Shown: piece by piece, positions 58,110 to 61,072 of the stretch | Layout of the letters: the number at the start of each line of letters is the position of its first letter | How positions within the stretch are numbered: the stretch's first letter is position 1 | Assembly: GCA_022592435.1 (NCBI GenBank) | Contig: JABYQS010000005.1 | Coordinates: 372,001-436,000 of the forward strand | Length of the DNA stretch: 64,000 nt | Source: Cerioporus squamosus | Taxonomy: Eukaryota; Basidiomycota; Agaricomycetes; Polyporales; Polyporaceae | Direction of reading: 5' to 3' | Program-made: the position numbers and the translations under genes | Notes under the pieces: generated by a model | What the model was told of the DNA's origin: nothing | Seen by the model: the letters and a program-made list of their open reading frames with translations, nothing else | Database searches by the model: none

Positions 58110-61072
58110 ATGCCTTCTCCCTCCAACACGAAGTTTGGATACCTCCCCGTACCCCTGCCGCCAAACGTAGACTACAAGAAGCAGTGTGTGGAGGTCCCTG
58201 GCACAAAGCGCCCAGGACAGACGGGTGCGTCACTTCGCGTCGCTGAGGCTCGTCGCGAACCAAACTGACAGAGTCAATGCTTACCAGCACATTACCGAGG
58301 ATGTGAGTACTCCATACAAGCTCGCAGCATGCTATGTATCGCGTGCTAGTGCAGTTCCGAAACGCTTGCTGACACCCCGCCCCGGCCCGTGTCTGACCTT
58401 CATTCACTTCAGCGGCGTTCCCGTACGTGACGCTCGAGTCCCCCAACGTCTTCACGAACCTGGTCGAAATCTACGACGAGGGCTTCCAACGAGCCAAGGG
58501 CGGGCCCTTCCTTGGAACGCGCCCCATCATCTCTACCAACCCTCTGAAGTACGCCGACTATCACGAGTGGCAGTCTTGGACGGAGGTCAACGCGCGTCGT
58601 CGCGCAATCGGGAGTGCGCTTCACAAGCTCTTCCAGAGTGGCAAGGTCGGCGGAGGTGACCTGCCCACTGTCGGAATTTGGAGCAAGAACTGCGCGAGTA
58701 CGTGTCGTGTCATGTCGTCCGTAGTTGTACTGACTGGACTGACCTGCGCCTTCTACAGACTGGCAAGTGATCGACCTCTCGCTCCAGGCGTATGGCAAGG
58801 TCGGCGTCAGTCTATACGATACTTTGGGGAAGGACGCGGCAGGTGCGTGGTCATAAATTGGGGTAAGGGAGCTAGATTCGATGTTAAGACGCGTTTCTAC
58901 AGAGTTCATGTGAGTGCAGATACCTCACGCTTTCCCCGTCCTGAGGGAGCGTGCTGACACCGCGTCCAGCATCAACCATTCCGAGCTCTCGATCATCTTC
59001 GCGACCCCCAGCCATATACCCGCTCTCTTGAAGCTCGCGCCAAAATGTCCCGTCATGAAGATCCTTGTCGCCATGGATCCCCTCGACAGCAAGGAGAAGT
59101 CTGTGCTGACTGCCTGGGGCCAGTCAGTTGGGGTGGAGATCAAGGAGCTGGCTGAGCGTGCGTATGATCCAAATGCAAACCCGGATGTCATTACTGACGC
59201 GTGAGCATAGTCGAGGAGTTCGGCCGTACGAACTTGATTGAAGTCCTCCCGGCCACTTCTGAGCAGATTGCGACTATCTGTTATACCTCGGTGAGTTGTG
59301 TCCCTTCGGGCCCGTTCATGCATGCATTGACCTTGGTCTTCTAGGGCACGACTGGTCTGCCGAAAGGAGTCGTGATCACTCACGGTGCGATGGCGCAGGC
59401 TGTGCATGGCTACCTGCACCAGTTCGAGTTGACCTCGGAGACGACGATGATGTCGTTCCTGCCGCTTGCGCACATCTACGAGGTGCGCCGCAGCACACCA
59501 TGACGCGTACGGTTCTGTTATTGACGTTCATACCCTCAACAGCGAGTCATGGAGCTCAACGCCGTTGCGGTGGGCGCACAGATCGGCTACACCACCGGCG
59601 ACCCCTTGACCCTCCTTGAGGATTTCGCGGTCCTCAAGCCCCACTTCGTACCACTTGTGCCGCGGGTGCTGAACAGGATCTACCAGTCGGCGATGGCGGC
59701 GGGCACCGCTCCCGGCGTCAAGGGTGCGCTGTTCCGCAAGGCCGTGGCGACCAAGCTGCACAATCTGCGTACTACGGGTGACTTCCACCATGCGCTCTGG
59801 GACCGTCTGGTGTTCCGCAAGGTACGTTCGCCACTCGACAACAATGGAGACCCAGTCTGAGTCCTTGCTCGCTGTGCAGCTACATGCCGTCCTTGGTGGC
59901 AGGATGAAGTTGCTTACCACGGGTTCCGCACCCATCAGCGCCAGCGTCATGGACTTCCTCAAGATCGGTCTCCTGACTGAACTCGTTGAAGGTGTGTGTC
60001 AGGGACTACAGTCGTATAACTAGCAGCTACTGACTATTTTTCAGGGTAACCACATACTTGCTGCGAGGCTGGTCCTAACGCTAACGTGGGTCTCGCACAG
60101 TTATGGAATGACGGAGAATTGCGGTAGCTTCGTCCGGACTTGGTCATACGATCCGACCTCCAGCGGGACTGTCGGCTCCCCGCTGCCGAACTGCGAGCTC
60201 AAGCTCATTGACGTCCCGTCCATGGGTTACTCCGCGGAAGACAAACCCTACCCTCGTGGAGAGATCTGCATGCGTGGTGCTCAGCGTTTCACGTGCTACT
60301 ACAAAGGTGCGTGAAGCAATCAGTACCGCATGCCGATACTGACTCTACGCACCTAGACCCAAAGAAGACCGCGGAGACCATCGACGAGGAGGGCTGGCTG
60401 CACACGGGCGACGTCGGTCTGCTGGATGACTGCCTACGGCTCAAGATCATCGACCGGGTGAAGAACATCATGAAACTTGCGCAGGGCGAGTACGTCGCGC
60501 TCGAGAACGTCGAGAACGTCTACAGCGGCAGCCCGCTCGTCGCGCAGCTCTACGTGCACGGCGACTCGCTGCAGTCGTACCTCATCGCGGTCGCGGTCCC
60601 CGACCCGGTGCAGTTCGCGGCGCTCGTCTCCCGCGTGAAGGGGAAGCCCGTTGCCCCCGAGAACGTCGCCGCTCTCACGGAGGCCACACAGGACCCGCAG
60701 ATCGTCGCTGCCTTCCTCGCCGAGCTCCAGAAGCCGGCACGCGCGGCCAAGCTCAAGGGGTACGTGTCTTCCCGCTTGCGTGCAGGCTACCGAGCGGCTC
60801 ACATGCTACCGTGTCCATCCTCGCAGCTTCGAGACGATCAAGAGGATTCACTTGACCACTACGCCTTTGACGACCGAAAACGGCTGCCTGACGCCAACGC
60901 TGAAGATCAAGAGGTACGTGAGGGCTCGCTATCGTGCCTCTGTGCCCCTTCCTGACACTGGTGTTGACCTTGCTCTTGAATCTGCAGGAAGGAGACGTAC
61001 ACGTTCTTCAAGGAGCCTCTCGACGCGCTCTACGCCCTCGGCGAGCCTGCCGGTTCCGTCACGAAGCTTTAG
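58110..61072 (+). CDS. Long-chain acyl-CoA synthetase with microexons
   Basis: Activates long-chain fatty acids to acyl-CoA using ATP for lipid synthesis or beta-oxidation. Adenylate-forming motifs: ATICYTSGTTGLPKGVVITH, the loop before it, PLAHIYERVMELNAV, LLTTGSAPISASVMDFL, EGYGMTENCGS, GWLHTGDVGLLDDC and DRVKNIMKLAQGEYVALENV (fatty-acyl CoA synthetase signature region). N-terminal VEVPGTKRPGQTAHYRGS and KYADYHEWQSWTEVNARRR fit fungal Faa-type enzymes. It ends GSVTKL, a PTS1-like tail of uncertain value. The conserved protein can be assembled exactly only with exons of 15 nt (58288-58302), 7 nt (58903-58909) and 1 nt (60045), each between well-formed introns. Convergent with the MFS gene. 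Confidence 0.93.
58288..58302 (+). other. 15-nt microexon of the acyl-CoA synthetase
   Basis: Flanked by ttaccag and gtgagt. Supplies the HYRG of PGQTAHYRGSAFPYV, the conserved motif of the family; no other splice choice gives it. Confidence 0.8.
58903..58909 (+). other. 7-nt microexon of the acyl-CoA synthetase
   Basis: AGTTCAT between ttctacag and gtgagt joins KDAA to IINHSE as KDAAEFIINHSE, matching the family sequence at that position. Confidence 0.8.
59992..60100 (+). other. Two adjacent introns flanking a candidate one-nucleotide exon (G at 60045)
   Basis: Intron A is 59992-60044 (53 nt, donor gtgtgt, branch-like CTGAC, acceptor tttttcag); intron B is 60046-60100 (55 nt, donor gtaacc, branch-like CTAAC, acceptor cgcacag). 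Removing both and keeping the G gives EGYGMTEN exactly. Treating the 109 nt as one intron needs a donor four bases later (gtgtca) and adds a Val (EGVYGMTEN). Confidence 0.6.

What the first reader, a model, noticed from the sequence alone, without database searches (positions are those of the whole stretch)
59985..60110. Candidate single-nucleotide exon in the acyl-CoA synthetase
Seen: the gap between LVE(G) and the conserved YGMTEN is 109 nt, twice the usual intron length here. It divides into two complete introns of 53 and 55 nt, each with GT donor, branch-like CTGAC/CTAAC and pyrimidine-AG acceptor, separated by one G at 60045. Keeping only that G gives the invariant EGYGMTEN. The only GT-AG one-intron alternative inserts a Val into this motif. 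Known: a one-nucleotide exon has been reported in a plant gene; such exons are very rare. Inference: intron-defined splicing of short fungal introns, possibly stepwise (recursive) through the G, makes this feasible.
Basis: partly seen in the sequence, partly recalled or inferred. Interest (0 to 1): 0.82.

Follow-up and report, generated by a model that had tools for sequence, protein, structure and literature searches.

The report
One-nucleotide exon in mushroom enzyme gene
In a bracket fungus, a gene for a fat-activating enzyme appears to keep a single DNA letter as a complete exon between two tiny introns; traces of the same layout in related fungi suggest that it is real, old and often mis-annotated.

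Summary
In an otherwise intact 15-exon long-chain acyl-CoA synthetase gene (58110-61072, 694 codons), the 109-nt gap 59992-60100 splits into two GT-AG introns (53 and 55 nt) around one G at 60045. Of the splice solutions enumerated, only this one gives LVEGYGMTEN with nothing added or lost.

Relatives support it. 35 of 102 annotated homologues depart from EGYGxTE there, against 0 of 18 probably cDNA-derived ORFs and 0 of 15 in a paralogue clade. Sixteen models insert one residue, of 11 kinds, so no Val is conserved. Of 12 short ORFs with residues before the motif, 10 have S or R there, as a phase-2 acceptor demands; the 3 that reach far enough can all encode YAG|G|GT. The closest relative's faulty model seems to translate intron B from the G onward.

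No RNA of this species was available, so use of the exon is inferred. One-nucleotide exons are published for plant APC11 and VPS55 and Fusarium CYP621A. This is a new member of that kind, the first in Basidiomycota that my searches found, and possibly ancient in Agaricomycetes.

The parts
58110..61072 (+). Long-chain acyl-CoA synthetase gene, start to stop codon: 15 exons, 14 GT-AG introns, 694 aa
   Evidence: Gene model; Pfam AMP-binding 233 bits; 95% identical to Polyporus arcularius P0001
59880..59991 (+). Exon 10, ends GAA G (phase 1)
59992..60044 (+). Intron A, 53 nt, GTGTGT...TTTTTCAG
60030..60034 (+). Branch-like CTGAC of intron A
60045..60045 (+). One-nucleotide exon: G, second base of the Gly codon GGT in EGYGMTEN
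   Evidence: relatives
60046..60100 (+). Intron B, 55 nt, GTAACC...GCACAG
60075..60085 (+). Two branch-like CTAAC sites of intron B (60075-60079, 60081-60085)
60101..60306 (+). Exon 12, begins T TAT GGA (phase 2)
58903..58909 (+). Seven-nucleotide exon (AGTTCAT) of the same gene
   Evidence: 21 of 102 annotated models differ in length there, 0 of 18 probable cDNA ORFs
58288..58302 (+). Fifteen-nucleotide exon of the same gene

Best explanation
Position 60045 is a constitutive one-nucleotide exon. The spliceosome recognises introns A (59992-60044) and B (60046-60100) separately, across each short intron (intron definition), and removes them in two steps, leaving only G60045 to complete the glycine codon of EGYGMTEN. 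Either order works on paper: after A is removed B still has a GT donor, and after B is removed A still has AG|G. Shown here: the sequence, the uniqueness of the canonical solution among those enumerated, and the recurrence of the same frame problem in relatives. Inferred: use in RNA, order of removal, and an origin before the split of the Agaricomycete orders. The pair could have arisen by gain of intron B one base downstream of an older phase-1 intron, or by loss of an exon base rescued by a cryptic AG-G-GT, as Nelson and Syed propose for Fusarium (PMC12940212).
For: Exact motif only with G60045 kept. All 14 introns are GT-AG and the rest of the gene reads through 694 codons. Chance of such a split 0.2%. 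33 of 120 homologues have indels within 3 aa of this site, against 0-5 at the other junctions except those of the 7-nt exon (21 of 120). Departures from EGYGxTE: 35 of 102 annotated models against 0 of 18 probable cDNA ORFs, Fisher p = 0.0015; 12 of 20 in the orthologue clade against 0 of 15 in the paralogue clade, p = 0.0002 (tree, counts). Short ORFs: 10 of 12 with residues upstream of the motif have S or R just before YG, as AG|N demands (both residues also have other codons); the 3 that span a 50-75 nt intron B can all encode YAG|G|GT with G at donor +5. P0130 fits a phase-1 donor and a phase-2 acceptor in one ORF; P0141 fits the phase-1 donor. GKHVLTP in the Polyporus arcularius model P0001 fits 16 of 20 nt starting at 60045, the best offset tested (runner-up 15 at 60063); 0.035% of random and 0.13% of shuffled peptides do as well at that place.
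Against: No RNA from this species was available. Orthologue evidence is protein-level; no orthologue DNA could be read. The intron B donor and intron A acceptor score below the gene's reference range. P0127 (84% identical) reads EGAC...SPGYGMTEN, which fits one phase-1 intron of 60 nt, or a transcript that kept A and lost B, so the arrangement may not be universal. The AGGGT test on translations is lenient: shuffle probabilities are 0.07, 0.08 and 0.02 (strict) or 0.22, 0.23 and 0.11 (loose) for P0123, P0130 and P0134; P0123 matches at two places; the test also rings once in P0140, in coding sequence; and P0125, which reaches only splits of 45-49 nt, has none. 67 of 102 annotated models (15 of them paralogues) are regular at the site, and I cannot see by what gene structure.
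Confidence: 0.92

Rival explanations
1. One 105-nt intron (59996-60100) is removed and the protein carries an extra Val: EGVYGMTEN.
For: Canonical GT-AG and in frame. One annotated orthologue, P0007 (Trametes maxima), has Val there.
Against: Donor GTGTCA scores -4.8. The extra residue is not conserved: 11 kinds in 16 models, and none of the 18 probable cDNA ORFs has one. The two solved-structure alignments shown have no insertion between G and Y (2 of 128 matches shown). All 16 residues fit use of a GT four bases inside a GTxxGT donor, as a gene finder might do to keep the frame (my inference, by hand).
Confidence: 0.03
2. One 108-nt non-canonical intron (GT-CA 59992-60099 or TG-AG 59993-60100; both give the same mRNA).
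For: Gives the exact protein (worked out by hand from the sequence).
Against: Needs very rare termini (recalled) and leaves the two internal splice sites and the extra branch-like sites unexplained. P0123, P0130 and P0134 can encode the same internal AG-G-GT, and the P0001 model seems to begin an exon at that G.
Confidence: 0.02
3. Assembly or sequencing error, or a frameshift allele: the true gene has one ordinary intron here.
For: One extra or missing base near 59991-60101 would have the same effect; a DNA search of the assembly found only this one copy of the locus.
Against: The same site is irregular in 12 of 20 orthologue models, and P0130 fits phase-1 donor and phase-2 acceptor. The rest of the gene is intact.
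Confidence: 0.02
4. A stwintron (an intron nested in a splice signal of another) rather than two introns around an exon.
For: Fungal, about twice the median intron length, two successive excisions.
Against: A stwintron removes one continuous stretch. By hand, any continuous stretch giving the right mRNA starts with TG or ends with CA, so no nested canonical pair fits; one base is kept between the two introns.
Confidence: 0.01

Closest known systems
CYP621A one-nucleotide exon of Fusarium species (PMC12940212; sections 1-5 of the text read)
   Same: Nuclear fungal gene; AG-G-GT; upstream boundary phase 1, downstream phase 2; the exon base is the middle base of a glycine codon in a conserved motif; 139-nt gap in F. 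graminearum; all but one of the public transcripts wrong at that place, by the authors' account.
   Different: Unrelated gene (cytochrome P450) in Ascomycota; RNA reads support it there, not here. The likeness is therefore convergent (inference).
APC11 one-nucleotide exon of Arabidopsis (PMC4674806; abstract, one results section and discussion read)
   Same: Constitutive one-nucleotide exon needed for the reading frame.
   Different: Exon base is A; plant gene; proved by minigenes and cDNA.
APC11 and VPS55 one-nucleotide microexons of land plants (PMC8831610; passages seen)
   Same: Conserved, missing from annotations, read-mapping trouble.
   Different: Plants; VPS55 also has transcripts without the exon; RNA proof.
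Stwintrons of fungi (starts of abstracts seen; in PMC5639578 only a term search, one hit in its reference list)
   Same: Two short fungal introns removed in succession.
   Different: Nothing is retained between the two; here one base is.

Membership tests
Nuclear one-nucleotide exon | Exactly one base between an AG acceptor and a GT donor of two spliceosomal introns | tested here: met
   At sequence level: AG 60043-60044, G 60045, GT 60046-60047
Nuclear one-nucleotide exon | The base is needed for the reading frame and a conserved motif | tested here: met
   skipping G gives EVME and a stop; keeping it gives EGYGMTEN
Nuclear one-nucleotide exon | Arrangement kept in orthologues | tested here: inconclusive
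   Protein-level signs in relatives; no orthologue DNA could be read; P0127 may differ
Nuclear one-nucleotide exon | cDNA or RNA reads joining upstream exon, the base and downstream exon | not testable with these tools
   No reads of this species; 18 of 18 probable cDNA ORFs of relatives (55-58% identical) read EGYG[MLS]TE
Stwintron | An internal intron interrupts a splice signal of an external intron and nothing between is kept | tested here: not met
   By hand on the sequence: the required continuous excision would be GT-CA or TG-AG
Zero-nucleotide recursive splice site (AG|GT ratchet point) | Acceptor and donor abut and leave no base | tested here: not met
   AG-G-GT; leaving no base gives a frameshift and stop
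Long-chain acyl-CoA synthetase (AMP-binding, PF00501) | AMP-binding domain and full-length relatives | tested here: met

The most novel reading that the evidence does not exclude
The same one-nucleotide exon is an ancestral, conserved feature of this acyl-CoA synthetase across several orders of Agaricomycetes. It forces two-step splicing of a metabolic gene in which, of the five other splice outcomes tried here, all but the low-scoring Val form run into a stop near the joint, and it corrupts about a third of the annotated models seen here.
Probability: 0.6. Interest if true: 0.65.

Novelty: new member of a known kind. Interest (0 to 1): 0.55.

Why it matters
If RNA confirms it, this joins plant APC11 and VPS55 and Fusarium CYP621A, the nuclear one-nucleotide exons that I found in print, and is the first in Basidiomycota that my searches found (the library lacks most subscription papers). 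Like CYP621A it uses AG-G-GT in a glycine codon of a conserved motif, so two unrelated fungal genes would have reached the same design. It offers an easily tested substrate for intron definition and order of splicing, and it would explain a recurrent gene-model error in public databases.

Tried and rejected
Single introns (donor GT or GC) and intron pairs (first donor GT) were enumerated, with introns of at least 35 nt. A 19-nt exon (60027-60045) needs a 35-nt first intron and adds ATDYFS; rejected. A pair with first donor 59968 keeps GYGMTEN but loses eight residues and scores -7.1; rejected. The first gene model script misplaced several introns because of ambiguous anchors and was replaced. 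A search for a second allele found only the locus itself. Paralogues at C877, C135 and C988 have no intron just before the motif; that at C712 has one phase-1 intron there. A scan of viral contigs gave two distant loci, not examined. The third protein search (exon 10 read-through) returned one protein, P0141. The length argument was downgraded because intron 2 of the gene is 110 nt with a normal phase. In one search three ordinary junction motifs were tested as a control by regular expression: 2, 17 and 8 of 102 models lacked the motif. Substitutions count in that test, so I rely on the indel count (0-5 of 120 at ordinary junctions; background median 0, 90th percentile 5). The tree used 55 of the 120 homologues. 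Four papers that mention one-base exons in mitochondrial genomes (PMC12308204, PMC5436844, PMC8208691, PMC6067683) were seen only as search listings; from their titles they concern other intron types. Of the 8 papers listed only PMC1184071 was opened (passages).

Full report
What is there. The window lies in G000:C445 of a 54-Mb assembly. The genome is very probably Cerioporus squamosus (Polyporaceae; lineage): its contig C877 is 161,500 bp, the same as the contig listed for protein P0036, named Cerioporus squamosus, and P0036 matches that locus at 99, 98 and 95% over stretches of 136, 108 and 100 aa, and at 66-93% over shorter or intron-crossing stretches. Exons joined on protein homology give one gene from 58110 to 61072 with 15 exons, 14 GT-AG introns and 694 codons. 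It is an AMP-binding enzyme (PF00501, 233 bits), 95% identical to a Polyporus arcularius protein and 91% to one of Lentinus tigrinus, and best named a long-chain acyl-CoA synthetase.

The site. Exon 10 ends GAA|G (phase 1) and exon 12 begins T|TAT GGA (phase 2), so they cannot be joined directly: that gives EVME and a stop. The 109 bases between them divide as 53 + 1 + 55, with G60045 kept. In an enumeration of single introns and intron pairs, this is the only solution that yields LVEGYGMTEN with nothing added or lost. A pair with first donor 59968 keeps GYGMTEN but deletes eight residues, and its donor scores -7.1. Worked out by hand, a single continuous excision giving the same mRNA would have GT-CA or TG-AG ends. 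Skipping the G, keeping A, keeping B or keeping both reaches a stop near the joint; the Val form does not.

Strength of the signals. A matrix from the gene's other 12 introns gives 8.1 for the donor of A (reference range 7.3 to 12.7), 1.6 for the donor of B (below all 12) and -4.8 for the Val donor; the acceptors of A and B score 2.6 and 3.0 (reference 2.7 to 10.8). The B donor is thus weak in this species. Both introns have branch-like sites. Dinucleotide shuffles give such a split with branch sites in 0.2% of 20,000 trials, and without them in 5.65%.

Relatives, test 1: where do gene models fail? The search scored 7,361 homologues and listed the best 120. In an alignment with these, 33 of 120 have an indel within three residues of this site; the other junctions have 0 to 5, except the two of the 7-nt exon, with 21. 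By motif, 35 of 102 annotated models depart from EGYGxTE, and 0 of 18 proteins without an NCBI record (sources lgn, jgi or ena). Those 18 have 674-713 residues, 16 of them on contigs under 4 kb, so they are most likely uninterrupted ORFs from transcripts; I cannot prove this for each. They are 55-58% identical to the query and all read EGYG[MLS]TE. In a tree of 55 of the 120, the Polyporaceae orthologue clade has 12 irregular of 20, and its sister paralogue clade 0 of 15. The window genome's own member of the paralogue clade (C877) has no intron at the site. Irregular models therefore follow the intron arrangement. 'Faulty' is my reading of these departures; some could be real differences.

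Test 2: how do they fail? Sixteen models insert exactly one residue between G and Y: T 3, D 3, H 2, and V, A, F, S, R, E, Q, K once each. By my inference, all fit use of the second GT in a donor GTxxGT placed after GAAG, which would restore the frame. Two models, P0085 and P0106, keep an in-frame stretch that fits an intron of 57 or 51 nt ending CCAG before the G (by hand): a kept intron A followed by G, or a single kept phase-1 intron. The closest relative, P0001, has VMDFLK-GKHVLTP-YGMTEN. GKHVLTP fits 16 of 20 bases beginning at G60045, the best of the offsets tried (runner-up 15 at 60063); 0.035% of random and 0.13% of shuffled peptides do as well there. That model thus appears to begin an exon exactly at the one-nucleotide exon and run on into intron B.

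Test 3: read-through ORFs. A search with the ORF covering intron B and exon 12 found 20 short proteins. Twelve have residues before YG.TE and eight start at the motif's own Met. Of the twelve, ten have S or R there, as AG|T or AG|A/G demands for a phase-2 acceptor; P0127 has PG; and P0140 has an uninterrupted EGYG. Three of the ten (P0123, P0130, P0134) extend far enough to include the presumed exon at the expected distance. All three can encode YAG|G|GT with G at +5: P0123 at 50 or 63 nt, P0134 at 55 nt, P0130 at 71 nt, with shuffle probabilities 0.073, 0.020 and 0.081. P0125 reaches only splits of 45-49 nt and shows none. The test is lenient: P0140 also gives one match, in coding sequence. 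P0130 fits a phase-1 donor (EGMY) and a phase-2 acceptor in one ORF, the same frame conflict. P0141 fits a phase-1 donor (EGAC) in another relative. P0127 is the exception: it fits either a single phase-1 intron or a transcript with A kept and B removed.

Age. Irregular models occur in genera such as Panaeolus, Marasmius, Hydnomerulius, Russula, Stereum, Jaapia and Heliocybe (names, list; that these belong to several orders is recalled). If all share the cause, the exon predates the split of these orders. Without their DNA this stays inference. A distant paralogue at C712 carries one phase-1 intron at the same codon, which would suit gain of B beside an older A.

How it works. Both introns are of ordinary size for this gene, and a one-base exon is unlikely to be recognised across itself, so recognition across each short intron, with removal one after the other, is the sensible model. 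Guo and Liu argue the same for APC11 (discussion read). Order of removal and efficiency are unknown.

What is known. One-nucleotide exons with RNA support: Arabidopsis APC11 (PMC4674806), APC11 and VPS55 across land plants (PMC8831610, passages), and Fusarium CYP621A (PMC12940212), which its authors call the first fungal case. CYP621A also has AGGGT, phase 1 to phase 2, and the middle base of a glycine codon in a conserved motif. Microexons of 2-10 aa are known in Phanerochaete P450 genes (PMC1184071, passages). Searches that could have shown a basidiomycete one-nucleotide exon listed none by title or abstract start; most listed papers were not opened, and the library lacks most subscription papers.

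Verdict. It is a new member of a known, very rare kind, with a fair chance of being an old and widespread one.

Noticed in passing
58903-58909: A 7-nt exon (AGTTCAT) in the same gene; 21 of 102 annotated homologues differ in length at this place and 0 of 18 probable cDNA ORFs. It looks like a second conserved micro-exon.
   Followed up: partly
58288-58302 and 58303-58412: A 15-nt exon followed by a 110-nt intron, the longest of the gene; no hidden split of the kinds tested was found in that intron.
   Followed up: partly
L014 (G000:C712): A distant acyl-CoA synthetase paralogue has a single phase-1 intron in the same glycine codon (QG|GC Y), the position of intron A.
   Followed up: partly
L003 and L004 (G000:C988 and C135): Two nearly identical AMP-binding gene copies on different contigs, with the same match length and almost the same score: a recent duplication or a second haplotype left in the assembly.
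   Followed up: no
L017, L018: Two contigs in the viral collection encode distant acyl-CoA synthetase relatives (32% and 25% identity).
   Followed up: no
P0127 (protein, no window coordinates): An 84% identical ORF reads EGAC...SPGYGMTEN: either a relative with only one intron here or a transcript caught with intron A kept and B removed.
   Followed up: partly
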